This document shows positions 6,709-33,624 of a stretch of DNA of 64,000 nt, piece after piece. Source of the DNA: Persicaria tinctoria (Eukaryota; Streptophyta; Magnoliopsida; Caryophyllales; Polygonaceae); contig JBANSL010000009.1 of the NCBI GenBank assembly GCA_037127255.1, positions 17,683,975-17,747,974 of the forward strand. Direction: 5' to 3'. Position numbers and translations under genes: made by a program. Each line of letters begins with the position of its first letter. Positions within the stretch are counted from its first letter, which is position 1. Under the pieces are notes generated by a model that did not search any database, was not told the origin of the DNA, and was given only the letters and a program-made list of their open reading frames with translations.

Positions 6709-6729
6709 GTTAGGATGTATTCTTTAAGT

Positions 6730-7249: not shown

Positions 7250-7730
7250 TCTATACTATTATAAAAGAGCCAACTTGTGAATGAACAGTAATTAACACTG
7301 TCAACTAACTCCGTTTGTGTTTCCAGTTGTATTCCACTTTCCTTGCAAGAATGACAGAACGTATGGTTGAAGACGATAACATGAATGATCACAATGTTGA
7401 GGATTGCAAGAATGACGGACCTCAGACAAGGTAACTAAATGATCAAGGCTTCGACCTTTTAAGAAGTTCACATAAGCTCTTAGGTTCTCCCTATACTATT
7501 ATAAAAGAGCCAACTTGTGAATGAACAGTAATTAACACTGTCAACTAACTCCGTTTGTGTTTCCAGTTGTATTCCACTTTCCTTGCAAGAATGATAGAAC
7601 GTATGGTTGAAGACGATAACATGAATGATCACAATGTTGAGGATTGCAAGAATGACGGACCTCAGATAAGGTAACTAAATGATCAAGGCTTCGACCTTTT
7701 AAGAAGTTCACATAAGCTCTTAGGTTCTCC
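7250..7730 (+). mobile_element. Helitron-type 5' end followed by exact 240-bp tandem duplication
   Basis: A|TCTATACTATTATAAAAGAGCC at 7249-7272 is a canonical Helitron left end. The 240 bp starting at 7251 is repeated at 7491-7730 with about two substitutions (ACAGAAC/ATAGAAC and CAGACAAGG/CAGATAAGG). Inside each unit a short open stretch (ERMVEDDNMNDHNVEDCKND) lies between a TTTCCAG and an AAGGTAACT, which look like splice acceptor and donor. This suggests a captured exon of an unrecognised gene. No right end was found. Confidence 0.65.
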
Positions 7731-14844: not shown

Positions 14845-15063
14845 GAAAACCATAGAGACCCAAATTGGTCAATCAGCTACATCCGTCCTGAAACAATTCT
14901 AGACTCGGGGAGATAGAAATCTGGCGGAAAACCATAGAGACCCAAATTGGTCAATCAGCTACATCCGTCCTGAAACAATTCTAGACTCGGGGAGATAGAC
15001 ATCTGGCGGAAAACCATAGAGACCCAAATTGGTCAACTGACTACATCCGTCCCGAAACAATCA
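14845..15063. repeat. 82-bp tandem repeat, 2.7 copies
   Basis: GAAAACCATAGAGACCCAAA starts units at 14845, 14927 and 15009. The first two are nearly identical and the third stops after about 55 bp where the Athila-like coding remnant begins. It is not related to anything else seen in the window. Confidence 0.9.
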
Positions 15064-15197
15064 GGTACGCTCTATGGATCTTCTGAACCTAATCATAAAG
15101 GTAAATTTGCAGGACAGGTAGCGGCTATGAACGTAAGGAGTGGGCGTCAGATGCAAACGCTCGAGCAAATGACGGAGGAGGAGGGAGCTGGAGACGA

Positions 15198-15362
15198 GTC
15201 GATATCGACCACACCAGTCGATATCGACCAGTCCCCACTCGATATCGACCAGTCCCCACTCGATATCGACCCCCCAGGGTCGAAATCGACTCAACTCCTC
15301 CACAACAGAACCCGATGCCAGCAACTCCAGTCGATATCGACCATACACCAGTCGATATCGAC
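15198..15362. repeat. Cluster of TCGANNTCGA words (gag/protease linker)
   Basis: Seven copies of TCGATATCGA or TCGAAATCGA, usually within GTCGATATCGACC or CTCGATATCGACC, lie in about 165 bp. The words encode SIST or VDID/LDID depending on frame. Confidence 0.95.
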
Positions 15363-16177
15363 CCCCTCCACTCGACATCAGCACCAAAAAAGAAGAAAAC
15401 ACTGCCATTCCCGACGAAATCTTTGAAGAACCCAGCGGAGAAAAAGTTTCAGCGTTTTGTGAAGATGTTTCAAGGGCTCAACGTCACCATTCCCTTCACC
15501 GAAGCTCTTCATGAGATGTCATCCTACGTCAAGTTCCTCAAAGAAATCCTGAGCAAGAAGCGGTCAATAACTGAGATCGCAGAGGAATGCAGCAAGATGG
15601 AGCTTCCAGAGAAAAGGCCAGATCCAGGTAAGTTTGCTATCACTATTGGATTTGGTCAACATAAATCCAATGCACTGTGTAACTTAGGAGCCAACGTCAG
15701 CATCATACCTTTATCAATCTGGTCCAAAGTCAAGATAGGAGCCCTAGAGCCTGTGGATGCAAGACTATACATGGCAAACAATACAGTTGTCATCCCAACA
15801 GGCATGGTGGACGATGTACCGGTGCAAGTAGGTAAGTTCTTTGTCCCTGCTGATTTCTTAGTAATTGATATGGCAGAGGACCCTGCTTGTCTCATAATTT
15901 TAGGAAGACCCTTCTTAGCAATCGTCGATGCCAACATAAGCGTAAGGAAGGGAGTGCTCACATTCACCATCAGGAACGAGGTAATTGAGTATTCCTTTAA
16001 CAAAACTGAAAGGCATACAGATCCCATTGAGGTCAAATCCATTACAGAACGGTACATCACTTGCGGGGAGCCTAAGGTAAGAACAATGACTCCCAAAGAG
16101 CCGGAGAGGAGGGCTATGGAAGCCCAAATGGAGGAGATCATGGAAATCTGGGACGAGCATACAACAAATCCGATCGA

Positions 16178-16545
16178 AATCGAGTCAGGTAAGTCGATGT
16201 CGACTGATCTTTTTCCAGATTTTGCAGGGTCTAAGTATGGGGTCGAAATCGACCTGAACCACTCGATATCGAGTGGGTCACTCGAAATCGACCAACATTA
16301 TGCAGCAAAGTGGACTGGGCCACAACAACACTTGATATCGACCACCCTTGGTCGATATCGACCACCTCATTTCGACTCGACGTCTTCTCCATTGACCATG
16401 TCACCAGAAATCGAGCAGCAGAGGTCGATATCGACCACACCTAGTCGACATCGACCACCCCCTATTGAGCCGTGTTTGTCCACATCGACCGAAACTTCAC
16501 CAGAAATCGAGCAGCATAGGTCGATATCGACTGACAGTGGTCGAT
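16178..16545. repeat. Cluster of TCGANNTCGA words (protease/integrase-tail linker)
   Basis: About ten full words (centre AA, TG, TA, CA or TT) plus several one-base variants lie in about 370 bp. They are translated here in all three frames within one ORF: VEID/LEID, SISTT and GRYRP/GRFRP. Confidence 0.95.
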
Positions 16546-16824
16546 TTCGACCAGAACCTCAGAACCCGAATAGAGAAGAATCCGCAAAGGTAAGCCGAGG
16601 TATGGACCTTTCTTCCCCTATTTCGATTAAAGATCTATCTATACATGGAAGAGGTTTGCCTTGGTATGTAAGATCATGCAGGGTTTCCAATGATTATCCG
16701 AAAGACTACGAGGTAGGAGACAGGGTCTATGTCTCCAAATCCAAAAAACCATTGGTTTCCCAACAAATTCAACAACAAGAAGATGGGACCCTTCACGGTG
16801 CATAAGATCCATTCCGGAGGATTA

Positions 16825-17547
16825 TGACTAAACCAATATTAAAAACATCTGTCAGAACATAAAGAGCGTCAAACAATTAAATAAAAAACAAACAAGAAAC
16901 TCATATTATTATATTCCGCGGACAAAGGTCCAAAAATCCACTCAAATGCGATCATCCGCGGATGAAAAAGAACAGATACGTGGCAACCATGCCCACACCC
17001 CACGAGTATAACACGTGTTGAAAGTTGAGCACCACGTGGCGCAACATGCAGGGGTATCAAAGATCTATAAATAGGAAAAAAAATTCATAGGTCGAGGAGG
17101 ACTTTTTGGAAAGAGGGGGAGAGGGGAAGAGAGCGGAACAGGACACAGTGAACCCAGAAGAAAGAAGAACGAGAAGCTGTCATACGCGTGGAAAGAAACC
17201 TGATAAATTGAAAAGAGTCTACATCGTTCACAATGTCAAACTCCGCGGACGAAAACCCTGTCCGTCTTTAGTGTAAAATTCTATTAAGGACTGTTGTTAA
17301 TAAATCTCAAGACATTCTACAACGACAGGTAAACGAGTCAAGTTTCCAAATTGTCTAGGAAAAACTCGATAAGGGAACCGTCCTTCATAATCAGCTTTAA
17401 TTAACGTAACTTCCCGCGGCACAGGTTGGGCCGCGTCGATTTTTTCAACGCGGGTCAGGTAAGTCCGTCGTGAAGATTAGTCATTTCATTAGGTAGGTTC
17501 CCGGGCCCCACTAAAAATGGTGGTCTCTATTGATCGGGGCTTTTTCA
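16825..17547 (+). repeat. 5' LTR of the Tat element
   Basis: It starts TGACTAAACC and ends GGGGCTTTTTCA. It contains a TATA box TATAAATA at 17066-17073 and several CCGCGG words (for example near 16917, 16958 and 17242). The partner LTR is 30259-30980. Confidence 0.95.
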
Positions 17548-17548
17548 C

Positions 17549-17566
17549 TGGCGCCGTGTGTGGGAA
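17549..17566 (+). other. Primer binding site of the Tat element
   Basis: TGGCGCCGTGTGTGGGAA begins one base after the LTR. It resembles the TGGCGCCGTTGCCGGGGA primer site (tRNA-Asp 3' end) used by Athila/Tat elements, diverged in its 3' half. Confidence 0.65.
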
Positions 17567-17719
17567 CCCCCTCACACTAAGGGGTTTCCTTTTTAAGAAT
17601 TGACAAAAATCCTCAAACTTTAGAGAAAATTGAGATCCACGAATAAGGTTATAAATACAAGTTTTTAGATATCTAACATCGAATTTTCTAACGACAGGCA
17701 GATTCACAACAACAAGAAG

Positions 17720-19306
17720 ATGAATGATAGCCAGAACAATCAGACTCAGAACATGAGTCAAGTGGTTCACCAAGATCAAGAAGCCTCTAGCATGTATGTC
17801 CCGCTGACACCACTAACTAATCCTAATGCTGAAATGGGAGAACAGAACCTTGAAACTCCTCCTCAACACTATGGTAATCAGTACGGACTGGACGGAGGAT
17901 TCATCCCACAGAACTTCTGGTATTATGAAGCGCGACACGAACAGCCAAACCCTTTTCAACAGGAGCAATCTCAGTACTTTTATTATGATCAATGGGGGCA
18001 GAATCCGCGTCAGCAAGGAAACTATAGACCAGAAGGGCAGTATGAGAATTTTGATAGACGTAACACTGCATATGATAATCCCAGTAACTGGAACTACGGT
18101 TTTCAGAACCAGGAAATACCACATCAGACATGGCAAAATGATCACTATTACAGAGAAAATAAACATCGACGCGGGGATATGTCGACAGATGTTTCCACCT
18201 CTACCAAATCTGACTCTGTAGAGAAAAGAAATGAAAATGCACCAGCCGGTTTCCCATCAGTGTTTACTCAAGAGATTTGCTCCGCGACAGTACCAAAGCG
18301 GTGGAGAGATGTGAACCTCATGAAGTATGATGGAACAACTGATCCTGAAGATCATCTCTGTCATTTTGCTACTGCAATGGGGATAAATGAGTATAATGAT
18401 GCCATGTTGTGCAGAACATTCCCTTCAACCTTAACGAAGATCGCGCTAACTTGGTTCACAAACCTTCCAAAGGGGTCTGTAACCAATTTCGCCCAGATGT
18501 CCCACATCTTCACATCTCACTTCGGGAGTGCGCGATCAAGAAAGAAGACGATGCTCGACTTGAATTCCATTAGGCAAGGAGCTGGGGAATCCTTGGGGCA
18601 CTTTTTCACTCGATTTACCAGCATGGTAGTCCAAATCCCTAACTTCAATCACGAATCGGCTATCATCATACTTATGGGCAATCTAGCTGAGGGAGATTTC
18701 AAGACATATTTGTTTCAAAAGAAGCCCACAAGTTATGATGACCTAAGAGAGCGGGTTTCTAGGCAGATTGAAGCGGAAGAAGCAGCCGCGTCCAGCTCCA
18801 AGGCGAATACTGGAAATTCAGGACCTTTTGGGAAATTGATAGGAAAATTTAGAAAGGAGAAAGCCAAGCCTCCTAGACATCATTCAGAGGCAATAGACTT
18901 CCATCCCCGCCATGATGAAGTGCATATGAACTTGGAAAGGGGTCAAGGATCTCGTCATAGGGAGAATCATCCGCGTTCTTATCATCCACGAGAGAGTCGA
19001 AACGGAAATCGCGATATGAGATCTCCACCTAGAAGGGAGAACCGACCCGATCATAGACCTCGGTGGGAGGACCGAGATCCTAGGTTTGACGAATCTCGTA
19101 ATCCACAAGAACGATTTGATAAGCCAAAAGATCTGCGTAGAGATCTCCCATTCCACAACCGGGGAAGGGGGAGAGGAAGAAGAGGACGCGGAGGGAGGTA
19201 CAACTACACGCCCGCAGCCCAGAGATCTGTCAATCAAAGAGAAGCTCAAAAGACAGAAGCAGGTCAAATACCAGAACCAAAAGGCTTCATCAACACCCTC
19301 GCATGA
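17720..19306 (+). CDS. Gag polyprotein of the Tat element
   Basis: A frame of 528 codons is open from ATG 17720. A Gln/Asn/Tyr-rich N-terminus is followed by a typical plant retrotransposon gag domain (PF03732-like): YDGTTDPEDHLCHFATAM, LTWFTNLPKGSVTNFAQM and SIRQGAGESLGHFFTRF, at residues about 200-350. The C-terminus is Arg/Gly/Asp-rich (RGRGRRGRGG) and probably binds RNA. No CCHC knuckle is seen. It forms the virus-like particle in related elements. The frame closes at 19306 and the protease resumes in another frame, so pol needs frameshifting or the join is decayed. Confidence 0.9.
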   Translation: MNDSQNNQTQNMSQVVHQDQEASSMYVPLTPLTNPNAEMGEQNLETPPQHYGNQYGLDGGFIPQNFWYYEARHEQPNPFQQEQSQYFYYDQWGQNPRQQGNYRPEGQYENFDRRNTAYDNPSNWNYGFQNQEIPHQTWQNDHYYRENKHRRGDMSTDVSTSTKSDSVEKRNENAPAGFPSVFTQEICSATVPKRWRDVNLMKYDGTTDPEDHLCHFATAMGINEYNDAMLCRTFPSTLTKIALTWFTNLPKGSVTNFAQMSHIFTSHFGSARSRKKTMLDLNSIRQGAGESLGHFFTRFTSMVVQIPNFNHESAIIILMGNLAEGDFKTYLFQKKPTSYDDLRERVSRQIEAEEAAASSSKANTGNSGPFGKLIGKFRKEKAKPPRHHSEAIDFHPRHDEVHMNLERGQGSRHRENHPRSYHPRESRNGNRDMRSPPRRENRPDHRPRWEDRDPRFDESRNPQERFDKPKDLRRDLPFHNRGRGRGRRGRGGRYNYTPAAQRSVNQREAQKTEAGQIPEPKGFINTLA

Positions 19307-19309
19307 GGT

Positions 19310-21204
19310 TTGTCTATGGTCGGGTCTAGTAGGCAGGAGAAAAGAAATTATGAAAGGGAAGGAAGACAGCCACCATCCGCGTCAAGTAGAAGAATTTCTC
19401 TCATGCAACATGAGAATATTTCCTTCACCCCAAAAGACGCAGAGGAAGTAAGAATGCCGCACTCAGACCCGTTGGTCATTCACGCGCAGATAGCTGCCAA
19501 GAGAGTAAAAATGGTATTTATTGATACTGGGTCTTCTGTGGACATCCTGTCGTGGGAAGCTTTTTCTCAAATGGGAATCTCTGCGGCTTCGTTAAAACCG
19601 TATTCAGGAACGCTGATCACATTTAAGTACAGGTGGCTGGCATAATTGAGCTTACAGTTGTTCTGGGGATGTCTCCAAACAGACGTATGGAAAATATTGT
19701 GTTCACAGTAGTAAAGATTCCCACTGTGTATAATGCTTTGTTGTGTTGCGTCTCGCTCTATAAATTCCAAATGGTAGTTTCAATCTACCACTTTTTAGGA
19801 AAATTCCCTTTACCAGAAGGAGGAATTGGCGAGGTCCGCGGACAACAACCAGAAAGTAGAAGCTGTTATTTAACCTCCATCAAGAAAAATAAAGAAGTGA
19901 TGTGTATAGGTGAGAATTGTGAATCCGAGGTCGGAGAGAATGACTCAGTCGAACTTTCAAAAGCTGAACTAGAGGTCCGGCCGACAGAAGTCAAGGTACC
20001 TACCACGGACGAAAAAATTGCATTTACACCCTTTCCAAATCCAGAGGAGAAAGTTTATTTGGGACAAGCACTGGAAACAAGGGAAAGAGTTAGAGTCTTA
20101 GAAATTATAGCAAGATCAAGAGACATTTTTGCGTGGAGTCCTCGAGACCTGCTAGGTGTCCCATCCGCGATAGCCTTACATACCTTAAGGATTCGTCCAG
20201 GAACGAAACCCATAGTACAAAAGAGGAGAAAAATGGCTCCGGAAAAAGCTGTCGCGGCGAGAGAAGAAACTAATAAACTTTTAGAAGCAGGCTTCATAGA
20301 GGAAGTGGAAGATTCTGAATGGCTCTCAAACGTGGTTCTGGTGAAGAAATCTAATGGGAGGTGGAGGATGTGTATCGATTTTACTGATCTTAACAAATCC
20401 TGCCCAAAAGATAGTTATCCACTACCATCCATAGATGAGCTTGTCGATGGGACCGCGGGGAACAAAGTCCTTAGTTTTCTTGATGCTTACTCAGGATACA
20501 ATCAGATAAACCTGAACCCTTCAGACAAAAAAGCTACAACTTTCATCACTAGTCAGGGAATTTTTTGCTACCGCGTCATGCCTTTCGGACTCTGAAATCC
20601 TGGGGTAACTTTTCAGAGAACAGTTGATCGGATCTTCCGTAGTCAAATTGGCAGGAATGTATCAATTTATGTTGATGATATCGTCGTCAAAAGTGAAAGA
20701 GCAGAGGATCACGCCGCGGATCTACAGGAAACTTTTGATTCTCTTAGGAGAGGCGGTTTGAATTTAAACGCAGAAAAATGTGTCTTTGGGGTTGATTCTG
20801 GGAAATTCCTCGGTTTTATGGTTAGCCATAAAGGAATTGATGTAAATCCTGAAAAAGTCATAGCAATTCAAAACCTTCAACCGTCGTGAACGATTAAAGA
20901 GTTACAATCTTTAAATGGAGCAGTAAACTATTTGAGCCATTTTTGCTCCTGCTTGGCGGATAAGTCATTGCCTTTCTTCGCTCTGCTCAAGAAAAAGGGA
21001 CCGATACGGTGGACTCCTGAATTACAGGAAGCTTTTGGAAATTTAAAACTTTTTCTGTCATTGCTTCCTACCCTTCATCAACCTGAGAGACAAGAGGTCC
21101 TCCATCTGTATTTATCAGTAAAAAATATCACCATCAGTGCAGTGTTGACGCGAGAAGAAAAATTCCCGGTCTACTACATTAGTCGTGTTCTTCAGGACGC
21201 TTAG
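19310..21204 (+). pseudogene. Pol part 1 of the Tat element: protease and reverse transcriptase
   Basis: The protease active site DTGSSVDILSW lies near 19530; the frame changes near 19633. RT follows: WRMCIDFTDLNKSCPKDSYP, FLDAYSGYNQINLNPSDKK, YRVMPFGL, then the catalytic IYVDDIVV near 20670 and FLGFMVSHKGIDVNPEK. In-frame stops interrupt RT at 20593-20595 (TGA after MPFGL) and near 20887 (TGA), and another (TAG) closes the connection region near 21202. Each sits where a single C-to-T or G-to-T change could explain it. RT is therefore dead in this copy though its motifs are well kept. Confidence 0.88.
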
Positions 21205-21710
21205 ACAAGATATGAACCAGTGGAGAGAATGATCATGTGCTTGATATTCGCGGCAAGAAGGCTAAGACCTTATTTTCAAGATCATCCTATCCGAGTAATG
21301 ACATATTTGCCGATGCGACAAATCCTTCAGTCACCATGTTTATCAGGAAGAATGATGAAGTGGCAGTCAAACTCACAAAATTTGAAATAGAGTATACTCC
21401 GCGGAAAGAAACCCTTGCTCAATCTCTAGCCGACTTCATCAGCAAGACAAGTTTTGAATTGGGTTCTCAAACAGAAAGAAGTGAGTGGACACTCAGGGTA
21501 GATGGTGTAACTAACAAGGATGGATGCGGAGCAGGAGTTACATTAACAGCACCTGATGAACGGCAGTACAATTATGCTTATAAGTTGGATTTCCAAGCTA
21601 CCAACAATGAAGCCGAATATGAAGCCTTACTAGCTGGACTAGAGATAGCTTTGATTAAAGGTGCTAGACAGGTATCAGTTTACACCGATTCAGAAGTAGT
21701 GACGCGGTAA
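21205..21710 (+). pseudogene. Pol part 2 of the Tat element: RNase H domains
   Basis: The end of the connection/first RNase H region reads in one frame (ARRLRPYFQDHPIRV) and shifts near 21285. A second, archaeal-type RNase H follows: WTLRVDGVTNKDGCGAGVTL, NNEAEYEALLAGLEIAL and VSVYTDSEVV, which keep the D-E-D residues of the fold. It ends at a TAA at 21708 where CAA would be expected. Dual RNase H is characteristic of the Tat clade. Confidence 0.85.
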
Positions 21711-21743
21711 ATAACAGAGAAATATGAAGCAAGAACTAGATTA

Positions 21744-23182
21744 ATGCCCGATTACCAGAGAAAGGCGCGAGCACTATCCAAAGCTTTCTTAAGTTTTTGT
21801 TTGACGGCTGCTCCCAGGAATGATAACCAGCAGGCGGACGCGTTGGCACGGTTGGGAGCTACAATGCCAGAGGAAGTAGGAAGAGAAGTGATTCTTGAAA
21901 GGATGAGTAACCGAAGACTTATTCAAGAAGTCTATCAGGTACAAGAAATAGAGATTGAAGACTGGAGAGCACCGATCGCGGACTATTTAGGCAAGGGTAC
22001 CCTACCTGAAGATAGAGCCGCTGCTAAGAAGATACTCATTAAATCCTCTCGGTTCACTATCAGGGAAGGAAAACTATACAAGAGAGGGTATTCCTTACCA
22101 GATCTATTGTGCATATCGTCAGAAGAAGGAAGTCAAGTAGTGGAAGAGCTGCATGATGGAGTTTGCTCGCATCACCAGGGGTGGAGAGCTGTTGTGGCCA
22201 AAGCAATCATGCTAGGATATTATTGGCCTACTATGAGACATGATGTCCAAAGTTATATACAGAAATGCGACGCGTGCCAAAGGTTCGAAAATCTGAATCA
22301 CCGTCCTTTTGAGACAATGAAGAGCATAACCGGAGCTTGCCCTTTTTCCGTCTGGGGAATGGACATTCTCGGTCCATTTCCCACTGCTCCCGGACAGTTG
22401 AGATATGTTTTGGTCCTGGTTGATTATTTCACTAAATGGGTGGAAGCCGAAGCGATGGGATTAATAACCGCGGAGAAGGTGAGGAAGTTTTTGTGGAAGA
22501 ATGTTGTTTGCCGCTTCGGAGTACCCGAGACAATAATTACAGACCATGGACCTCAATTTGATTGTGAAACAATCAGAGATTTCTGTGTCGGACTGGGCAT
22601 CAATCTTAAAATCTCATCCGTGGCTCACCCACAGACGAATGGGCAGGCGGAAACAACTAACCGACAGTTGTTACATGGGATACAAAAGAAACTCGGCAAC
22701 ACAGCAAAAGGGCGTTGGGCAGAACTTTTACCATTAGTACTCTGGTCCTATCGCACTTCAGCAAAGACCCCCACTGGAGAAACTCCATTTTCTTTAGTCT
22801 TTGGTATGGACGCGGTTATCCTAGTTGAGAGATTGATACCGTCAGCACGGATAATGGCATACGACCCGGACATCAATGATGAAGCACTGGAATTTGAGCT
22901 CCATCTCATAGAAGAACGCAGAATGACAACCGCTTTGAAGGAGCTAGAATACAAGAGGAGGTTGTCCAAGTATCAAGATAGACGAATTTCCCCGCGGCAT
23001 CTCAAGGAAGGGGATCTAGTGCTACGACAAGCTACCTCAGGGGGGAAGCTAGACCCCAACTGAGAAGGACCATATATAATCATCAAAGAAGTTCAAAAAG
23101 GCGCATATAAACTCAGCACTCCCAAAGGAATCATCCTGAAAAAGACTTGGGACGCGGACAATCTAAAAAAGTACTATGTGTA
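21744..23182 (+). pseudogene. Pol part 3 of the Tat element: integrase
   Basis: The end of RNase H (NDNQQADALARLGA) is followed by the integrase zinc-binding region (HDGVCSHHQGWRAV, then CDACQRF). The catalytic core comes next: WGMDILGPFP, VDYFTKWVEAEA, IITDHGPQFD, and NGQAETTNRQ with the DDE glutamate. A C-terminal GDLVLR region closes it. A TGA at 23061 (expected Trp, DPN-W-EGPY) interrupts the last 40 residues, which continue to KKTWDADNLKKYYV at 23182. Otherwise the frame is open for about 440 codons. Confidence 0.9.
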
Positions 23183-23289
23183 ATCACTAAATAGCTAAAA
23201 TGAATATAAAACTTAGTCGCCCCCGCAAGAATCAAATAAGGCGGTTAGAGGGCGCTTTCTATGATGATTCACACCTAAAGATGCTTCAT

Positions 23290-24112
23290 GTAAAGACATG
23301 AGATGCTGGAGCTTAGCTCCGCGTCAGGCCTCTGATCGAATCCGCATTCTCAGAGCAGATACTTCGTGTAAAGACCTGAGACGCTGGAGCTTAGCTCCGC
23401 GTCAGGCCTCTGATCGAATCCGCATTCTCAGAGCAGATACTTCGTGTAAAGACCTGAGACGCTGGAGCTTGGCTCCGCGTCAGGCCTCTGATCGAATCCG
23501 CATTCTCAGAGCAGATACTTCGTGTAAAGACCTGAGACGATGGAGCTTGGCTCCGCGTCAGGCCTCTGATCGAATCCGCATTCTCAGAGCAGATACTTCG
23601 TAGTAAAGACATGAGATGCTGGAGCTTAGCTCCGCGTCAGGCCTCTGATCGAATCCGCATTCTCAGAGCAGATACTTCGCAGTAAAGACCTGAGACGCTG
23701 GAGCTTAGCTCCGCGTCAGGCCTCTGATCGAATCCGCATTCTCAGAGCAGATACTTCGCAGTAAAGACCTGAGACGCTGGAGCTTAGCTCCGCGTCAGGC
23801 CTCTGATCGAATCCGCATTCTCAGAGCAGATACTTCGTGTAAAGACCTGAGACGTTGGAGCTTGGCTCTGCGTCAGGCCTCTGATCGAATCCGTATTCTC
23901 AGATCAGATACTTCATTAAAAGACCTGAGACGCTGGAGCTTGGCTCCACGTCAGGCCTCTGATCGAATCAGCATTCTCAGAGTAGATACTTCGTAGCAAA
24001 GTCCTGAGACGCTTGAAGCTTGTCTCCGCGTCAGATCTTTAATTTAATTTACGCTCTCAGAGATATTACTTTTTAAAGCATGGAACACTAGAGCTTGTTT
24101 CTGCGACAAATC
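23290..24112. repeat. 78-79-bp tandem array, 11 monomers, in the Tat element
   Basis: Monomers (GCTGGAGCTTAGCTCCGCGT, CAGGCCTCTGATCGAATCCG, ...) begin at about 23305, 23383, 23461, 23539, 23618, 23697, 23776, 23854, 23932, 24011 and 24088. The first seven are almost identical and the last three decay. Units of exactly 78 bp are 26 codons, so an incidental open frame exists at 23298-23603. Each unit contains a GAGCTNNGCTC palindrome and a TCCGCGT word. Tandem arrays in this position are known in Tat/Ogre elements and can seed satellites. Confidence 0.95.
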
Positions 24113-24319
24113 TCAAAATGTATCTAAACATTCTAAGATCTGAATTTCATGACGGATCACTATTGAGAGCAAAACAAAAAACGTTCTTCCAACTTTCCTG
24201 GAGCTCCCAAAAATTTCATAATTCTTGAAAGAAATCATAGCCATTAATCCATCATAAAAAGCAAAAAACAAACAAGGATGAAACACGACGCCGAATAAAA
24301 GAACCAAGCAGCTATTAGC

Positions 24320-24831
24320 TCACGCCCGCGGAGCGCGAGCAGGGATAATGCGAGTTCTTCCCTGACTTAAACGAAACCCATTTGAAGGAGGACCCTCTGA
24401 CTCCGAGACAACCCACTCCGCGTCTACTTCATCCCCTACAGCATCCAAGATCTGGACATCGAAGTGATTTCCTCCTTTATAGATAAAGGTTAAAGAAGAA
24501 CCAATGTGAACGCTGTGTGACTCAGCAAAGTCATTCCAACCACCCCCTAAAAAGGGAACTCCATAGTCTCTGCGCATAACCTCCACTGGGAAGTCACGAA
24601 GAATCCTAGTGGACAGAAGAACATTCCTAGGAAGATCTGGCCCAAGTCTATCTTCGAAGCATAGGGGCAAAGACTAACAAAAACAACATATTTTAAGGGA
24701 TGCTAACAGATAAACTGACTTGATAAAAAGAAAAAGTCAACAATAAACAAACTAACCAGACGGAGAAGTTGCTCAGGAAAACTAATCCTCTCAAAGAAGG
24801 ACCAAGGTAAACCAGCCATAGAAGGCATCAT
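24320..24831 (-). CDS. Two-exon B3-domain protein 1 (antisense in the Tat element)
   Basis: Exon 1, 24831-24757, encodes MMPSMAGLPWSFFERISFPE and QLLRL. The intron is 83 bp (24756-24674, GTTAGT...TTGTTAG). Exon 2, 24673-24320, encodes the rest of a B3 DNA-binding domain: LPRNVLLSTRILRDFPVEV, LGGGWNDFAESHSVHIGSSL and FIYKGGNHFDVQIL. Total is about 142 residues with no stop or shift. The pattern PWSFFxxI...PxxV...W.DF...H.(L/V).(I/V)G..L.F.Y.G...F matches single-B3 REM-type plant proteins. A TATA box, CTATATAAAAA, lies at 24875-24885, about 45 bp upstream of the ATG. It probably encodes a nuclear sequence-specific DNA-binding protein, carried as cargo. Confidence 0.85.
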
Positions 24832-24874
24832 GAAAGCACAACAACGAGTTTAATGGTTTCTTTCTCACACTCTC

Positions 24875-24885
24875 TTTTTATATAG
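24875..24885 (-). promoter_or_regulatory. TATA box upstream of B3 gene 1
   Basis: CTATATAAAAA on the minus strand, about 45 bp before the ATG at 24831. The sense B3 gene at 25968 has a TATAAAA at an almost identical distance, which supports both as real core promoters. Confidence 0.6.
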
Positions 24886-25178
24886 CAAAGATCTGGACAT
24901 GTGTCGAAAGGCAGAAATATTGGACAAATAAGTTTCAAATATCACATCATTGAGACAAGAACCACATGCACCATGCATGAGATAAACAGTAAACACTATT
25001 ACTGAATTTATCAGAAATCCTGTGAGGTGAACATCATGACAAATAGACCTCGAAAGACTAAAAAACAACATGCATAAATAGGAGGATCCCCAGAAGTAAT
25101 TGCCATAAGTTGGATAAACATCTACATTACAAAACAGATGGAGGAATCTAAAACCTTATTCCTCTAGGGCTAGATATT

Positions 25179-25651
25179 TTAAAAACCATTCGAAATTGTT
25201 TCGTGAGAAGCATGATCATCGTTATTTCCCCCACGCGGATCCACCACCTGAACTTCGAAGTGAGCCTCACCCATATGAGTGAAAATCATAGAGGCCCCCT
25301 GTTCAAAGCCATGAGAATCTACAAAGTCTTTCCATCCGCGGCCAAGGTAAAGAAGACCACCGTTACGCCGCTCTATGCAAACCAGGAAGTTGTGCAGTAG
25401 ATAAGATGAAAGAAAAACCTGACCAGGAATAGCGTCGGCATACTCCTCCTCAAACCGAAGTGGAAGTAGCTAAAAAATGAAGAAGTATTAGTTAAAAGTA
25501 AGCTCTCTAAAGATTTCCAATTTAGTTAACTCACCAATTGCAAGAACTGTTCTGGATAATCGATCGCTTGAAAGAAAGCCCAACGGGTTTCTGGCCCGAT
25601 AACCCCGTCTGCCCTAAATGACAGGGGAGGAACTATAATAGATCCTCGCAT
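25179..25651 (-). CDS. Two-exon B3-domain protein 2 (antisense in the Tat element)
   Basis: Exon 1, 25651-25535, ends TRWAFFQAIDYPEQFLQL. The intron is 65 bp (25534-25470, GTGAGT...TTTTTTAG). Exon 2, 25469-25179, encodes LLPLRFEEEYADAIPGQVFL, RRNGGLLYLGRGWKDFVDSH and GASMIFTHMGEAHFEVQVVD. Total is about 135 residues, uninterrupted. Exon structure, intron position (just after PEQ.L.L) and domain match genes 1 and 3, so the three are tandem paralogues. Downstream of the stop is about 350 bp without a gene. Confidence 0.85.
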
Positions 25652-25916
25652 CTCGATGAGATTGGAAAAAATAGTAAAAATCCCTTTACTTATCAGCCGC
25701 AGGGGGACGGTCAAAAAGAAAAAAGAAATACATGCATGACATGCAACGAGTGACACAACCATCAAGAGCACGCGTCCCACTTTTTCCGAGAAAAGTTAAC
25801 CAGATGTTGAACCTTTTCCCAAGATCGGTAAAAGTAAAGATACAGTAAAGGAAATTAAAAATTACTTGTTGGTAAAAAGCGAAGAAACCAAGGACAGGAA
25901 AACCTCATAAGACGAG

Positions 25917-25923
25917 TATAAAA
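25917..25923 (+). promoter_or_regulatory. TATA box upstream of the sense B3 gene
   Basis: TATAAAA on the plus strand, 45 bp before the ATG at 25968. Confidence 0.5.
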
Positions 25924-25967
25924 CACGCCCAAAACATCCATGAGTAATAAGCAATCCTAAAAACAAG

Positions 25968-26303
25968 ATGGATCCAAATCCAAAGCCCAGGGCTTTCTAC
26001 AGAGTCATTATGAGGGAAGAACAACTTCAAACCCTTCGCCTCCCTCTCATGTATGTTCTAATCGACGAAGACGCTCATACTCAGGCTAGGCTCTAGTCCC
26101 GCTCCAACCAGGAACACGAGGTGAAGGTAGACAAAGATGAAGATGACTTTTTCTGGTTAACCCAAGGGTGGCGCGACTTCACACAAGCAAATCGAGTCAA
26201 TGTCGGATCCGTGTTGATTTTCACCTACATGGGTGATTCTATCTTTGAAGTCGACGTTGTCAGCCCGGATAGCGAAGAAAATGGAGAGATAGGCCATCCT
26301 TGA
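25968..26303 (+). pseudogene. B3-domain gene 4, sense orientation, one nonsense codon
   Basis: From ATG 25968 the frame encodes RAFYRVIMREEQLQTLRLPL (B3 start), then a TAG at 26094-26096. It continues with FFWLTQGWRDFTQANRVNVG, VLIFTYMGDSIFEVDVV and SEENGEIGHP to a TGA at 26301. The B3 pattern is complete. The single TAG fits CAG-to-TAG deamination. Unlike genes 1-3 it has no intron after the first strand of the domain and runs in the retrotransposon's own direction. It would otherwise be a protein of about 111 residues. Confidence 0.75.
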
Positions 26304-26546
26304 TCTCCCAATAATTTCTCCGCGTCAACAATATAACAAGCTTAAAGGGATCCAGCCCCTGTGAAAGGTTTCTGTACGCAGTTTCTATTATTAATAATAA
26401 AGATCCCTCCTTTTATTTCAGCTTGAGAAAACACACGAGAATAGTAAGGAAATCATGAATTCCCTTCTTGCTTTATTTTATTCCACAAAAAAGCTTATAT
26501 CAAGAAACAAGCTTGAAAAACTCCAAAGGGATAACGCGGAAATAAC

Positions 26547-26987
26547 TCAATTAGAACTACACAATGAAGAAACTGAGTCCGAAGTAGCCTTGGGTTCATC
26601 CTCGACTTCACGACGCGGACAAACTTGAAAGGAAACATTGCCCCTATGAAAGAACATCATGGCACTTCCTATTCCCAGGTGATGAAGCATAAGGAATTCA
26701 TCCCAACCGTTGTCAATTTGAAAAAGACCGTTTTCACTCCAAGATACGGCCACAGGAAAGTCGCAGACGAGATAAGATGAAAGAAAAGCCCATCGAGGCG
26801 GGAGAGGACCATAATCAGCCTCAAACTGGGGAGGCATAACCTACATATTAGCAAAACCAAGGCCTAAGTTGAGAAAGCTCAAACTTCATTTAAAACAAAG
26901 TTAAAAGAAACTCACTAGCCGAGAAAGTTGTTCCACATTCTCAATCTTTTGAAAAAAGGCCCAAGGATTAAAGTTTCCTGGAGGCAT
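26547..26987 (-). CDS. Two-exon B3-domain protein 3 (antisense in the Tat element)
   Basis: Exon 1, 26987-26916, encodes MPPGNFNPWAFFQKIENVEQ and LSRL. The intron is 75 bp (26915-26841, GTGAGT...ATATGTAG). Exon 2, 26840-26547, encodes VMPPQFEADYGPLPPRWAFL, QIDNGWDEFLMLHHLGIGSA and MMFFHRGNVSFQVCP plus an acidic/Ser tail. Total is about 121 residues, open throughout. The domain is more diverged than in genes 1 and 2 but keeps W.(D/E)F, GIGSA and FFHRGN.SF. No clear TATA box is seen upstream. Confidence 0.8.
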
Positions 26988-27337
26988 AATACTTGCAGAA
27001 GCACGACCGGTTAACACAACTCAGGAGATAACAAAAAGATGGAGACCTGGGCCTTAAAAAGAAAAATTCATCCGAAAGAATAAAGACAAGTGGTGAGGAA
27101 ATTTTGAACACCAGGACTAACCCTTTCAACACTTGGAGAATTCGGAATATAAATATATAGATATTTACTACAGATAAAGCATGCAAGCAGCGCCAATGTT
27201 TTAGCCGGAGAGATCTTCAACATATTTTCAAAACAAAAGAAGTATCTCAATAATGCACCAAAAACCAGGAAACCATGTATAGATTCCCAATATCCTTAAA
27301 AAGTTTCATCCCACACAAAACCTAAAGCCAAAGTCTT

Positions 27338-29739
27338 TTAAGGAGTGGCTGCCTTCTCAACTTCTTCCTCCGCGTTCTCATCATCGTCATCTTCGGAATA
27401 AGAATCTTCCGCATCCATCTCCTCCTTCGAAAGCCCCCAGTCAGCACTATCCAAGCTAGGCTCAAATTTTTCCAAAGGAACACCGGGGTTGTTTGATGAA
27501 CGCGTAACACTCTGGTTGATCCCTGCAACCATTCCCTTCCGAAAATAACTAAAGCATTTGTCTTTCGAGATACTAGAGCCTTTTGAAGTCTGAAGACAAA
27601 CTTTCGCCACGGAGGACAAGAAGGAGAGACCGGCCTCAGTTTTGATCCACTCAGGGGATAGGTAGTTCAAACCCTCAGGACTCTGAAGCCATTGCAGGGC
27701 CACGTCTTGATCTGAGCGCGCCTTAACGGTGTCAAGCTCATGTTTAGTGATGGATAGCTCCTCACGAAGGATGGAGAAGTCTTCCTCCATTTTCTCAATG
27801 GTAGCCTGTTTAGTTTGAAGAAGCTTCCGTGAGACATCATCAGAAGCCTCTAGCTCTTTGACGCAGGAGACAGCAAAATTTGAAGAAATTTTTAAATCAT
27901 CATATTTCTTCTTTGAAGCTGCCATAGCCTCTTTTAGAGTTTGCACGTCCTCGTGAAGGTCAACCGATCTTTTCCTAAACTTTTCCACCGAGGCCGGACC
28001 CCCCACTGTATTCCCTAATATTCGAAGCTGGTGGTTCAGTTTTTTGATTTCCTCATCCTTCTTCTTAAGATCTTCCTCTCCGCATACCATACGTCTCTCA
28101 ACATCTGGTTGAATCACCCTCAACTACAAACATCAAGGTTAGAATAAGAAAATTTGAAGATAGGACGCGTCAAGACAAATAAGGAGAAACAATAAAAAGG
28201 TTTTTGACTTACCCACTGAATGATACGATCGAAGTTGGTGGAAAGAGTAACGGGGTCCAAACGCTTAACATATCCTTGCTCCGGGAAACAACGCTTCTTG
28301 GTTGGGAAAGCAAGGCCTTGAAGGTCAACTGGATCAAAACCTGGGATCGGAAATTCACGAAGGGTCGCCACACCCTCCAAAAAGAGCCCCTTTTTATCCG
28401 AAACTGATGGTCCAACAGCAATGGCAATCCTCCTCTTTTTAGATTTCGAAGACTCGGGCGCGGATGGACAAATGCGTTTCTCTCGAGATGCAGGAACCAA
28501 TGATGAAGACTCAACTAAAGCTCCAGTCTCGTCCGCGGCATTTGCATCAACATTTGACGCCACTTCTAAGGCCTGAGGAGGAACGGGAGGATCATTGAAA
28601 ATTTTCGGTTTTAACGCGGAGCAAAAAGGCCCTGGGACCGTTCGACAGTTAAAGCCTTGCCCAGATCTGTCGCGGACCAAAAACCATTTATATTTCCAAT
28701 TTGGCTTACTAGACAATCTCTCCATATACCTACAACTTGAGTTGCATTGATAAAATCTTGTGTCTTGAGTCCCCTTTTTTAAGGAAAAAATACTGAGCAT
28801 CAACTGCAATGAGGGAGCAACACCGATCTCCTTACATCTCATAATGAAACTGGTAAAAAACATCCAACCATTCGGAACAATCTGAGCAGGACTCAAGTTA
28901 TATTCCTCCAAAAACTTCGAGAAAAAAGGATGAAGAGGAAGTCGGAAACCCTGAGATAAACTAGCTGCATACACGACTAAACAATCTTCATAAGCGTCCA
29001 AACAACCACCTCCTTCCTCGGGAAGACAGAATTCAACATCCGCTGGCCATGGGAAGACTCGCGAGAGAGCATCAAGGTCTTCAAAGTTCAGAAGAATAGT
29101 GCAACCCCTCAATTTACTCACAGGGGATCTCCACGGATGAACCCTTTCAAGCACAATCGGGGGACGACTGGCAGGAGGTGGAAGAGGTTTGAAATCCCCC
29201 GAGAAAAGACAAGAATCTAGATCCCCTAAGTCATATACTGGGGTGTCCAGGTCGCTCAAATTCTCCTTAGAACGGATTACCTTTGGGCTTTCTGCTAAAC
29301 CGATTGGAGGAAGCTCATAGGGAATCCAAACCTCCTCCGACCCTTGGTCCGCCGACTGAGATATGGATGAAGCCTCCTCGTCCACAGATGAACTAGCACC
29401 TGAATCATCCACAACATTTGGATTTTCATCTTCCACGCATCCCTTCGAAGAAGAAGAAACCGAGTAAGGTGAAGAATAGTAATCAGGGTCAGAACGCTTC
29501 CGGCACCTTCTCACCTTAATAGGACTACCAGTAGGACCCATTCGACCTGGGGTAGACGCAGATGTAGAAGAAGATGACTCCGACGAGGAATCATTAGAGT
29601 TGGAAGAGGAACTCCCAGAAGAAGAAGAAAGTGTCTCAGGGGTCGGACGCGCTTGAGAAGATGAAGCAACGCCACTCCTCCACCCTTCATCCCTCTCAAA
29701 ATCTTCTAGCGAATCACGCTCCTTGCTGAGATCAGCCAT
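27338..29739 (-). CDS. Antisense two-exon ORF of the Tat element (PF04195-type 'putative gypsy type transposon' plus coiled coil)
   Basis: Exon 1, 29739-28213 (509 codons), starts MADLSKERDSLEDFERDEGW. It has a Ser-rich acidic N-terminus, then a block at about residues 225-365 containing LPLHPFFSKFLEEYNLSPAQ, IVPNGWMFFTSFIMRCKEIG and KPNWKYKWFLV. This is the signature of the PF04195 family found as an extra antisense ORF in plant gypsy elements. A KSKKRRIAIAV cluster may be a nuclear signal. The intron is 89 bp (28212-28124, TGG|GTAAGTC...TTTGTAG). Exon 2, 28123-27338 (261 codons), is in phase and encodes a Lys/Glu coiled coil, then LQSPEGLNYLSPEWIKTEAG and an acidic tail. About 770 residues, no stops. 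Function is unknown. The upstream ATG at 29811 is possible, but MADLS is the more usual start. Confidence 0.82.
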
Positions 29740-30258
29740 TTCTAAAGAAACTAGAAGAAAATTGTGCGAAGTTTTACTCATACAAAGTAAAATTTCATCC
29801 AAAAAACACATTTGGAGACAATTTCATACCCAAATCTACGATCTAAACGTCAAGAAATCAAGAAAATCAATATAGAAAACTCAAGAATAGCCTAAAACAA
29901 GAAAAAATACCTTGAAAAAATTGAAGAAAACCACCAAAAGCGTCGAGCAAACAGCCGGAACCCTAGAAAACCGCCGCCGGAAAACTAAGATAAAGATAAG
30001 GATTAAATTTCTTGAAAAGTGAAAGAAGACAAATGTTGGGTGAAAAAGAGAATGGAACGGGGTAACTTATAGGAAAATTACTGACGTTTAGAATTCCAAA
30101 CATAAATGGGCCTAATGGGCCCAAATTGGGCCATAACTCGATAAAGGAAAGGCCCATCAACCCCATCGGAATCAATAACGGCAACAAAGCTACAGATGTT
30201 TACATTTTTGTCGATCCGCGTCAATTACTAGACGGAATCAACACGGCCCGAGGAGCTG
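29740..30258. other. Leader of the antisense gene and 3' end of the Tat internal region
   Basis: No ORF worth calling is present. On the minus strand it is the probable promoter/5'UTR of the antisense gene (a CTATAAG lies near 30068). The purine-rich stretch just before the LTR (GGCCCGAGGAGC) is a weak polypurine tract. Confidence 0.4.
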
Positions 30259-30980
30259 TGACTAAACCAATATTAAAAACATCTGTCAGAACATGAAGAG
30301 CGCCAAAAAATTAAATAAAAAACAAACAAGAAACTCATATTATTATATTCCGCGGACAAAGGTCCAAAAATCCACTCAAATGCGATCATCCGCGGATGAA
30401 AAAGAACAGATACGTGGCAACCATGCCCACACCCCACGAGTATAAAACGTGTTGAAAGTTGAGCACCACGTGGCGCAACATGCAGGGGTATCAAAGATCT
30501 ATAAATAGGAAAAAACTTCATAGGTCGAGGAGGACTTTTTGGAAAGAGGGGGAGAGGGGAAGAGAGCGGAACAGGACACAGTGAACCCAGAAGAAAGAAG
30601 AACGAGAAGCTGTCATACGCGTGGAAAGAAACCTGATAAATTGAAAAGAGTCTACATCGTTCACAATGTCAAACTCCGCGGACGAAAACCCTGTCCGTCT
30701 TTAGTGTAAAATTCTATTAAGGACTGTTGTTAATAAATCTCAAGACATTCTACAACGACAGGTAAACGAGTCAAGTTTCCAAATTGTCTAGGAAAAACTC
30801 GATAAGGGAACCGTCCTTCATAATCAGCTTTAATTAACGTAACTTCCCGCGACACAGGTTGGGCCGCGTCGATTTTTTCAACGCGGGTCAGGTAAGTCCG
30901 TCGTGAAGATTAGTCATTTCATTAGGTAGGTTCCCGGGCCCCACTAAAAATGGTGGTCTCTATTGATCGGGGCTTTTTCA
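30259..30980 (+). repeat. 3' LTR of the Tat element
   Basis: TGACTAAACC...GGGGCTTTTTCA, TATA box at 30500-30507. It is nearly identical to 16825-17547 and is followed by the GATTA duplication. Confidence 0.95.
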
Positions 30981-31053
30981 GATTACAATTGATGGACAAG
31001 AATGGAGTCTTATTTGAGGCCCAAGCCACGTGGGCGCTGCAGATGCCACCCTG
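30981..31053 (+). pseudogene. Athila-like ORF copy 1, 3' part after the Tat insertion
   Basis: After GATTA the sequence continues LMDKNGVLFEAQATWALQMP and a TGA, identical at protein level to the C-terminus of the intact copy at 63195. Confidence 0.9.
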
Positions 31054-32150
31054 AGCTTATGGAGAAGAAGTTGGCCTAGCGACTATAAAGTCTAGAGCTT
31101 GTAACAAAACAATCAGATTTTAGGATTTTTAGATATTTTTGTTTTTGTTTTTTTTTGTTTTGAAACATTACTTCTGGATATTATCTGTATAACAAACTCT
31201 TGCCGGTATGAAAAAATTGCAGAAGTACTCGATGTCGACCACCCATGACGAGCAAATGAGCCTGTGGTCGAGGAAAGATCATCCTGAGACTTCAACTGTA
31301 CTCGAGATCGAGTAGATCTAGTCGACATCGACTACTCTCCTCGAGATCAACCACTTTTGCAGCAACTTCAACATTCAATTCCGACGTTCTGCACACATGT
31401 CTAGTGAGTCTCTTACCCTTGTTTTTATACAGCGAGGACACTGTAATGTTTAAGTATGGGGTGGGGGAAGGGCTTACTTTGTACATAGTTGATTTTATTT
31501 GACCATATGTGTGCATATTTAAAGTTTATTCTCGAATTGCTTATACATGACTATTTTGGATTCCATATTTTATCTATGTGCTTACACGTTTGTTGTCCAA
31601 AGGGCTTATAAAAATCACCCCCATTAAAAATTTTGATTAGTATCATGGAAGTTATATTGAACTCGACGATGCAAAATTGGATTCATTAGAGATATAGCAT
31701 GAAATTGCCTAGTAAAGAGAAGTCACAATGAAGTGCATTATTTTCTTGAAAACCATGAAAGGAGGTAAAATTTGAAGTTGCTTTTGACATGTTGCATGAT
31801 AAAAGGATGGAGGACTTTATATTTTCCATACAATGCTCATATTGTTTATATCCCCAACCATACCTGTGCTTATGCATCACAAAAGCCATATTTATGCCTC
31901 ATTTCATATATCGCTCCACATGATCTAAATATTGCCCATTCTTTATCTTATTCCCTCCGGGGATTATGTTGAGAATGGAAGTTACATTATGAAGATTATT
32001 ATATGACGTTTGTGTTGTTGTTATCATTATTTTGGAGTTTGGCAGGAGAATGATCATATTATGGAAAATTTAATGACTGACAGAAAATCCGGTCATCTCA
32101 GGAGATAAAGGTAGATCGACCCTGCCTGCGTTGAGATAATAGTTCCGCAG
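31054..32150 (+). other. 3' untranslated region of the Athila-like copy 1
   Basis: It closely matches 63196-64000 and, in reverse, 61384-61822. It includes the TTTAAGTATGGGGTGGGGGA phrase near 31449. TCGANNTCGA words occur near 31228, 31300 and 31322. No gene is seen; the small frames are not conserved between copies. Confidence 0.75.
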
Positions 32151-33624
32151 GATGCAGAATGCTGGAATCTGTCAAAGAGGTCGATATCGACCTAACTTGG
32201 CCGATATCGAGTGGATCACAACGAGCAGAAATGTCAGAAATCGACTAGACCACTGAGAGCAACACTGAAGAGGTCGATATCGACCAAGTCAAGACAGGTC
32301 GAAATCCATTCTAGAACCCGAGGTCGAGTGAAGCTGAGAAGACATGTCGATATCGACCTAACTTGGTCGATATCGAGTAACCACCAGAAGCCGATTTCGA
32401 GCAATCCGAGTCCAGATTCCGAGTGGGCTTTCTTCCACATGAAGCAAATGATATTCTATCAAGATGGAAGATATTTATCTACTTTAGTTACTTCCCATAT
32501 TTACCCAAGGGAATTTATTTGTTTTATTTAAGATATTTATCAATGTTTTATTTTAGGAATTAAAGAGATAGATAGATTTAGATATAGATAGGATTGAACA
32601 CTATAAATAAGGACCTAGAGGCTGAGTTTTAGGATCATTCAAGCCACAAGCAATTGTGTTTACCAATAGATAGCAAGTTTAGAAAGTTTACAGAGCTTGG
32701 AGCCGATTGGAGTAGAGTTTTACAAGAGCGGTTTTTGCTTCGATTGGTTGTAAGTTTTTATTCAGTTTAATGCAAGTAGTTTCCTTTATGTTATTGATTT
32801 GTGTTTTAATGATGAGAAGCGAGTAGTCGCCCTACTTCTGGGGTTGGGGTGAGCCCGATAGTGGCCATGTAGGGATGATTTTTATATGCAATTTCATCTT
32901 CTATCTCAGTTTGTGATTCTTCTACGACAGTAGTGGGTGATCCTTATTTGTATTATTGAAGCGAAAGGGATCTTAATATGAATTCGGATTAATCATTAAA
33001 AAGGGTTAATAACAATTAGGGTTTATGCGAAAGTCTCTATATTCTTAATTGTTAATAAAGAAAGTTATTCGATGAAAAGGCATTATCTTTTATACTTTGG
33101 CATGATTTCTACATGGTTATTGTTGTGGCATTGAAACCCCGGTCTTGGAAGTCTTTTAGTTTATTGATATCAAAACCCCAAATCTGCGTTATTTATGTCC
33201 TTTTATTCTTCGGACTTTCTTTTCCGGCATTATTTATTATTTTCTGCAATTTTACAGTTTCTGCACAAGTAGTCGATTTCGACCTCTGACAGGTCGATTT
33301 CGAGTCACTAAGGCCAATATCGAGTGGACTTCACTCGATTTCGACTCTGTTGCTTTTGTTTTGCAGGAACTCGACAGATTTCAACTGACTTCAGTTGATA
33401 TCGACCAACCACAGGTCGATATCGAGTGGTCCCTGAGTCGATTTCGAGAGCAATTTGGAACGAGAAAGGCGAGCGCTGACACGCTTCCTCGTGGATACGA
33501 TCCTGAATAATGAATACCCTACCACTACAGCGTGAGGGTTTCTTGTATTTTATTTCCTTGAACATGGAGTTGGTTTGCTTTTACATTTCGTGTTATATTT
33601 TGCATACTAGTTTCCCTCCTAACA
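32150..33624 (+). mobile_element. Degenerate 3' LTR of the Athila-like copy 1
   Basis: The right part aligns with the reverse complement of the LTR-like blocks 56221-58213 and 58715-60841. It shows a TATAAATA box at 32602-32609, the ACACGCTTCCTCGTGGAT phrase near 33480, and a terminus CCCTCCTAACA at 33624 matching CCTCCTACTACA. The left boundary is not clear. It carries many TCGANNTCGA words (32178-32420 and 33270-33450), mostly with TA or TT centres. Confidence 0.7.

What the first reader, a model, noticed from the sequence alone, without database searches (positions are those of the whole stretch)
24320..26987. An LTR retrotransposon carrying a family of B3 DNA-binding genes
Inside the exact LTR and GATTA boundaries of the Tat element lie three tandem two-exon B3-domain genes on the antisense strand (24831-24320, 25651-25179, 26987-26547). 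All have the intron at the same place and all are open. A fourth, on the sense strand, has one stop. Two of the four have a TATA box about 45 bp before the ATG. Plant B3 proteins bind specific DNA. An element encoding several could control its own chromatin or host genes. I do not know of a described B3 cassette in this lineage, but could not search.
Basis: partly seen in the sequence, partly recalled or inferred. Interest (0 to 1): 0.92.

Follow-up and report, generated by a model that had tools for sequence, protein, structure and literature searches.

The report
Retrotransposon family carrying four transcription-factor genes
A family of jumping genes in a plant genome carries its own set of four small genes for plant-type DNA-binding (B3) proteins, and natural selection has kept these genes intact for a long time, which suggests that the jumping gene brings its own transcription regulators.

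Summary
Inside a complete LTR retrotransposon (GATTA duplications) lie three antisense two-exon B3 genes and one intronless sense B3 gene. All four products match Pfam B3, two of them over the curated cut-off. The element has the antisense TRP28 gene and long pol-3'LTR region of the Retand lineage. The cassette is no one-off: 40 of 40 scored places in this 1.68-Gb genome match it, 32 across all four genes. Ten cassette elements chosen for listed LTR pairs all have 5-bp target duplications. Nine of ten fetched TRP28 loci carry it. Over 30-31 copies dN/dS is 0.13, 0.28, 0.15, 0.07; even copies at dS 1.0-1.5 keep all four. The antisense genes keep their introns; the sense gene has none. RY motifs (CATGCA, the site of seed-type B3 factors) and TATA boxes are conserved before the genes, and the LTR has RY plus G-boxes. 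Best reading: a self-encoded B3 regulatory module acting on the element's own promoters. Expression, DNA binding and occurrence in other plants are untested. A B3 domain in Gypsy elements was listed once before (Aegilops tauschii, PMC9289625).

The parts
16820..30985 (+). Complete Retand-type LTR retrotransposon with its GATTA target duplications (16820-16824 and 30981-30985)
16825..17547 (+). 5' LTR; promoter motifs CACGTG 17012 and 17033, RY CATGCA 17045, TATAAATA 17066
   Evidence: RY, second CACGTG and TATAAATA in 22 of 22 LTRs aligned, first CACGTG in 20 of 22
17669..19306 (+). gag (PF03732)
19307..23063 (+). pol: protease (recalled motif), reverse transcriptase, RNase H, integrase (PF00665, PF17921); broken by stops and frameshifts in this copy
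23212..24094 (.). tandem array, 78-bp period
24320..24831 (-). B3a: exon 1 24831-24757, intron 24756-24674 (83 nt, phase 0), exon 2 24673-24320; 142 aa
24875..24884 (-). TATA box of B3a
24972..24979 (.). RY palindrome CATGCATG before B3a, 15 of 15 copies
25179..25651 (-). B3b: exon 1 25651-25535, intron 25534-25470 (65 nt, phase 0), exon 2 25469-25179; 135 aa
25731..25745 (.). RY sites in the shared promoter region between B3b and B3d; TGCATG at 25740 in 15 of 15 copies
25917..25923 (+). TATA box of B3d
25968..26303 (+). B3d: sense-strand, intronless B3 gene, 111 codons; one stop in this copy
26547..26987 (-). B3c: exon 1 26987-26916, intron 26915-26841 (75 nt, phase 0), exon 2 26840-26547; 121 aa
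27180..27185. RY site before B3c, 13 of 15 copies (10 of 15 in the more divergent set)
27338..29823 (-). antisense TRP28 (PF04195) gene; probable intron 28212-28124 (GT..AG read by eye), then a coiled-coil exon 28123-27338
30259..30980 (+). 3' LTR

Best explanation
Retand-lineage LTR retrotransposons of this plant carry an old, inherited module of four short B3-domain (REM-like) protein genes between pol and the TRP28 gene. Shown: presence, wide distribution in the family, long purifying selection, introns kept in the antisense genes and absent from the sense gene, conserved RY and TATA motifs. Inferred: the genes are transcribed from promoters of their own; the proteins bind DNA of the element, most likely at the RY-bearing intergenic promoters and the LTR promoter (G-boxes, RY, TATA), and set when and where the element is transcribed, either as activators or by competing with host B3 factors (LEC2/FUS3/ABI3 activators, VAL1/2 repressors) that use the same motif. 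The antisense placing lets intron-bearing genes pass through the RNA stage unspliced.
For: B3 homology. Family-wide: 40 of 40 scored places, 32 spanning all four genes; 8 of 12 further integrase loci fetched and 9 of 10 TRP28 loci fetched. Selection: dN/dS 0.07-0.28 in 30-31 copies against 0.96-2.47 in the shifted frames of the same strand; ratio 0.08-0.16 at dS 1.03-1.53; indel events 9 coding against 145 noncoding in nearly equal lengths. Promoters: RY 8 against 0.85 expected, 0 of 500 shuffles, conserved in place; the LTR motif set is conserved; RY and G-box act together in seed genes (PMC11333834, passages).
Against: No expression or binding data. RY binding is known for LEC2/FUS3/ABI3/VAL-type B3 proteins; these four are closest to At1g16640, a B3 protein of the REM kind (class name recalled), whose site is not known to me. 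B3a and B3c are under the Pfam cut-off. I noticed RY by eye before testing it, so its significance is optimistic. RY before B3c is missing in 5 of 15 loci. B3b has no clear TATA box. B3d has an early stop in 10 of 30 copies. 4 of 12 integrase loci and 1 of 10 TRP28 loci had no B3 in the stretch fetched.
Confidence: 0.5

Rival explanations
1. The B3 proteins act mainly on host genes: they shift host development or chromatin (for example by blocking VAL/PRC2-type repression at RY sites) towards cells in which transposition pays.
For: RY is a host regulatory site read by both activators and repressors (PMC11333834, passages); four diverged paralogs under selection could have several targets.
Against: RY is enriched and conserved in the element itself, which self-regulation explains more simply.
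Confidence: 0.2
2. The RY and G-box motifs serve only host factors (LEC2/FUS3/ABI3, bZIP) that switch the element on in embryos, and the B3 proteins have another job, such as guiding integration, packaging or a structural nuclear role.
For: The LTR has RY next to two G-boxes before a TATA box, the arrangement of seed maturation promoters.
Against: It leaves the coupling of B3 genes with B3-type sites as a coincidence; it can also be true in part alongside the main reading.
Confidence: 0.2
3. Passenger genes: host B3 gene fragments captured once and carried without function.
For: Plant elements capture host genes often; a MULE-type repeat in the same genome carries a B3 exon.
Against: dN/dS 0.07-0.28 against about 1-2.5 in shifted frames, few coding indels, splice sites and order kept at dS over 1.
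Confidence: 0.02
4. Nested one-off insertion, or an assembly artefact.
For: The element itself is nested in another repeat.
Against: 40 scored places on 14 contigs; ten elements with their own, different 5-bp target duplications.
Confidence: 0.01

Closest known systems
Retand-lineage Ty3/gypsy elements with an antisense TRP28 gene (Vicient 2025, PMC11963269; parts 1-3 of 5 read)
   Same: gag-pol, long pol-3'LTR region, tandem repeats, antisense PF04195 gene with coiled coil
   Different: That survey lists TRP28 and five other antisense domains, no B3, for ORFs of at least 600 bp; the B3 exons here are at most 354 bp. The pol-3'LTR region here is about 7.2 kb against 2.9-6.6 kb.
B3 domain in Gypsy consensuses of Aegilops tauschii (PMC9289625; section 12 and passages read)
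   Same: B3 domain inside Gypsy-type elements, found in at least five consensuses
   Different: One sentence in a domain screen, one grass species; gene number, orientation, lineage and selection are not given in what I read. Not compared by sequence.
Phalaenopsis Gypsy element with an AlkB-type m6A demethylase ORF (PMC9289625)
   Same: Large Tat-clade element that kept an acquired host-type gene
   Different: One enzyme ORF in orchids; here four paralogous DNA-binding-type genes with promoters of their own
Host B3 genes of the REM kind (At1g16640, 1yel)
   Same: Best PDB profile match, E 1.3e-8; the domain begins at profile position about 15-16 at the start of exon 2, as in many genomic hits
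   Different: Single short domain, in a transposable element, in several hundred or more possible places (1091 candidates, 40 scored)

Membership tests
LTR retrotransposon (Ty3/gypsy) | two near-identical LTRs, TG..CA ends, 5-bp target duplication, gag and pol with integrase | tested here: met
Retand lineage (Tat clade) | antisense TRP28 (PF04195) gene between pol and 3' LTR | tested here: met
   E 3.8e-13, 49.9 bits against cut-off 26.2
Retand lineage (Tat clade) | long pol-3'LTR region | tested here: met
   23064-30258, about 7.2 kb; longer than the published 2.9-6.6 kb
Retand lineage (Tat clade) | reverse transcriptase groups with Retand in a tree | not tested
   no reference sequences were fetched
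B3 DNA-binding domain (PF02362) | profile match over the curated cut-off | tested here: inconclusive
   met by B3b and B3d (34.6, 40.2 bits); B3a 28.1 and B3c 19.8 are under 30.1; copies of B3c give 18.0 and 24.3
B3 DNA-binding domain (PF02362) | B3 fold | tested here: inconclusive
   best four Foldseek hits of the B3b exon-2 model are B3 domains but E 0.17-0.95; the sequence profile finds 1yel at 1.3e-8
B3 DNA-binding domain (PF02362) | binds DNA | not testable with these tools
   needs DAP-seq or EMSA
REM-type host B3 genes | intron near B3 profile position 16 | tested here: inconclusive
captured passenger gene | no selection, dN/dS near 1 | tested here: not met

The most novel reading that the evidence does not exclude
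Retand-type retrotransposons carry an ancient four-gene B3 regulatory circuit of their own: the encoded proteins read RY-type sites in the element's LTR and cassette promoters, forming a self-encoded switch that ties transposition to the embryo or seed program and may evade VAL-PRC2 silencing. It may be widespread in plants but hidden from surveys that ask for ORFs of 600 bp or more.
Probability: 0.33. Interest if true: 0.93.

Novelty: new variant of a known kind. Interest (0 to 1): 0.83.

Why it matters
What the long region between pol and the 3' LTR of Retand-type elements does, and why it holds antisense genes, is an open question (PMC11963269). Here part of it is shown to be a conserved set of transcription-factor-type genes with recognisable promoters, so the question becomes testable by DAP-seq, reporter assays and embryo RNA-seq. 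It would be a plant case of a retroelement that brings its own sequence-specific regulators, like the accessory regulators of retroviruses. It also illustrates a rule: genes with introns can survive RNA-mediated transposition in antisense, while the sense gene has no intron.

Tried and rejected
One-off nested insertion: rejected. Open frames as evidence: ORF length is not significant and was dropped. The scattered 85-aa B3 hits as copies of this cassette: rejected; 13 fetched loci show a separate MULE-type repeat. Relatives elsewhere: the search for homologous proteins with B3b scored none of 2 candidates at E <= 1; with a B3d copy, 2 of 2 ENA proteins from contigs of 624 and 614 nt, organism not shown; with TRP28, 15 weak hits, 14 of them named as Escallonia proteins. 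Viral contigs and genome contigs gave no relative. No collection of other plant genomes was available to me. Literature: searches brought up no description of B3 genes in Retand or Tat elements in the held library; PMC13175896 (passages) is a chance co-mention; most other listed papers were not opened. PMC7264820: part 1 of 3 read. A first dN/dS row for B3d used a frame off by one and was dropped; the frame was corrected and the ratios were made. Reverse-strand frame rc1 also gives low ratios (0.14-0.33) because it shares third positions with the gene; the gene frame is lower in all four. In one search the extraction anchors on the best tblastn piece, so a frameshifted copy can count as stop-free; one search is the stricter reading. 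The MULE-type repeat's ORF that I took for an OTU protease by eye had no Pfam hit.

Full report
What is there. The window lies in a 1.68-Gb plant genome, G000:C9:17683975-17747974. An LTR retrotransposon spans 16825-30980. The LTRs are 723 and 722 bp and differ at 6 sites and one indel; GATTA stands on both outer sides. K2P 0.0084 gives about 0.32 My at 1.3e-8 per site per year (the rate is recalled). It carries gag (PF03732), pol with integrase (PF00665, PF17921), broken by stops and frameshifts in this copy, a 78-bp tandem array at 23212-24094, the B3 cassette, and an antisense TRP28 gene (PF04195, E 3.8e-13) followed by a coiled-coil exon. [quoted passage not shown] I made no reverse-transcriptase tree, so the lineage name rests on these structural marks.

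The four genes. B3a, B3b and B3c are antisense, with two exons each and one phase-0 intron (83, 65, 75 nt) just before the core of the B3 domain; B3d is on the sense strand between B3b and B3c and has no intron. Pfam B3 E-values are 1.9e-6, 1.8e-8, 7.7e-4 and 3.3e-10. Exact proteins of other copies give 5.7e-6 (B3a), 7.6e-9 (B3b) and 6.9e-9 (B3d), and 2.8e-3 and 3.0e-5 (two B3c). B3a and B3c stay below the curated cut-off throughout. A profile of the four window proteins finds At1g16640 (1yel, E 1.3e-8) and then only weak hits, RAV1 (0.1) and auxin response factor 1 (0.25). An AlphaFold model of B3b exon 2 (pLDDT 71, pTM 0.48) has B3 domains as its best four Foldseek hits, but with E 0.17-0.95. 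The other three window proteins are 30-41% identical to B3b.

Family-wide. A search of the own genome with window 24200-27200 scored 40 of 1091 candidates; all 40 places match at 86-100% identity, the window included; 32 of 40 span all four genes in one piece, and 36 of 40 lie on contigs C1-C10. An integrase search scored 40 of 1197: 23 of 40 have a listed cassette within 16 kb. Of the other 17 I fetched 4.2 kb downstream of 12: 8 of 12 have B3 genes (5 all four, 3 part of them) and 4 of 12 none; in one of those four only the start of the TRP28 coding lies after pol. A PF04195 search scored 150 of 1309; I fetched 10 loci without a listed cassette, picked for long frames and a spread of scores and contigs: 9 of 10 have the cassette in the same order and orientation, 1 of 10 has none; in one of the nine B3a was not seen in the 3.6 kb fetched, and in another it is damaged. 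I fetched LTR pairs of 10 elements chosen because both LTRs and a cassette hit between them (partial in one) were listed: 10 of 10 have matching 5-bp target duplications, all different from GATTA, with K2P 0.007-0.039, about 0.27-1.5 My. So the cassette travels with the element.

Selection. In 15 copies read gene by gene, full-frame reading without a stop holds for B3a in 10, B3b in 12 (one without its final stop), B3c in 11 (one without its splice donor) and B3d in 10 of 15; 4 of 15 copies have all four open. Intron GT and AG are kept in 15, 15 and 14 of 15. dN/dS over all pairs of the 15 is 0.16, 0.30, 0.16, 0.14, and indel events against the window copy are 9 in 1527 coding and 145 in 1474 noncoding bases. 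With 30-31 copies and exon 2 (whole B3d), dN/dS is 0.13, 0.28, 0.15, 0.07, against 0.96-2.47 in the two shifted frames of the same strand. Between the window copy and L075, the lowest-identity locus, dS is 1.15, 1.53, 1.03, 1.10 and the ratio 0.10, 0.16, 0.10, 0.08. In a midpoint-rooted tree of 122 exon-2 sequences the four paralogs form four clean clades (support 0.82-1.0), so the duplications are older than the family sampled. Against this, an early stop is seen in 3 of 31 (B3a), 1 of 31 (B3b), 5 of 31 (B3c) and 10 of 30 copies (B3d). Decay after insertion would do this, but I did not test why B3d has more.

The intron rule. The three antisense genes keep the intron: AG stands before exon 2 in 28, 29 and 28 of 31 copies. 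B3d is contiguous across that place in 15 of 15 copies and in the 14 loci whose match covers 110-111 residues without a gap. A sense intron would be spliced from the genomic RNA and lost on reverse transcription (established with marked Ty1 elements; recalled), while an antisense intron is not seen by the splicing machinery there. This fits B3d having been turned round inside the element and having lost its intron. It is an inference: an intronless origin of B3d is not excluded.

Promoters. CATGCA/TGCATG (RY) occurs 8 times in the 3001-bp cassette against 0.85 in dinucleotide shuffles, 0 of 500 reaching 8; overlapping palindromes count twice, and I had seen the motif before testing it. The other 14 copies have 4-7. 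CATGCATG before B3a and TGCATG at 25740 are present in 15 of 15 copies. In 15 loci that include divergent ones, RY stands before B3a in 14 of 14, between B3b and B3d in 15 of 15, before B3c in 10 of 15. TATA boxes stand before B3a and B3d and, further off, B3c; none is clear for B3b. The LTR has two CACGTG, one RY and TATAAATA within 62 bp; RY, the second CACGTG and TATAAATA are in 22 of 22 LTRs aligned, the first CACGTG in 20 of 22; these LTRs average 91% identity, so this is weak evidence. RY is bound by LEC2, FUS3 and ABI3 as activators and by VAL1/2 with PRC2 as repressors, and G-boxes act with it in seed maturation genes (PMC11333834, passages).

How it most likely works. The genes look like a self-encoded regulatory module: short B3 proteins made from promoters that carry a B3-type site, with the same site in the LTR promoter. 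The simplest model is self-regulation, or competition with host B3 factors, tying transcription of the element to embryo or seed cells. Presence, age and selection are shown; expression, DNA binding and effect are not.

What is known. Vicient 2025 lists TRP28 and five other antisense domains, no B3, among ORFs of at least 600 bp; the B3 exons are at most 354 bp, so that survey could not have seen them. A screen of 121 angiosperms names a B3 domain in Gypsy consensuses of Aegilops tauschii alone, under a filter of five consensuses per species (PMC9289625, section 12). The searches named under Tried and rejected brought up no description of a B3 cassette in this lineage in the held library, which lacks most subscription journals. 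I file it as a new variant of a known kind: a Retand-type element with accessory genes, in which the accessory genes are a four-member B3 family under old selection.

Noticed in passing
L009-L021 (for example L009:4946-5200 + and 6693-7262 -): A separate dispersed repeat with a MULE transposase domain (PF10551, E 5.3e-16) carries a B3 exon (E 1.6e-15); 13 loci fetched, about 92-98% alike in most long stretches compared with L009. A second kind of mobile element with a B3 piece in the same genome.
   Followed up: partly
P0001, P0002: Two ENA proteins from contigs of 624 and 614 nt match B3d (96% over all 111 residues; 95% over 55%). If those contigs are transcripts, B3d is expressed somewhere; record type and organism were not shown.
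   Followed up: no
G000 contigs C1-C20: B3 hits come in pairs on contigs n and n+10 (two subgenomes or haplotypes), yet 36 of the 40 scored close cassette copies lie on C1-C10; TRP28 hits in general are on both sets.
   Followed up: no
window 14845-16819 and 30986-33510: The element sits in another repeat whose ORFs are rich in short repeated SRYRP/VDID-like motifs on both sides (Athila-like is only my guess); the 15105-16805 ORF had no Pfam hit.
   Followed up: partly
window 10454-13567 (-) and 44607-44829: A 1037-aa frame with leucine-rich repeats and a weak resistance-protein winged-helix match; parts recur at 87-88% identity near 44607-44829.
   Followed up: partly
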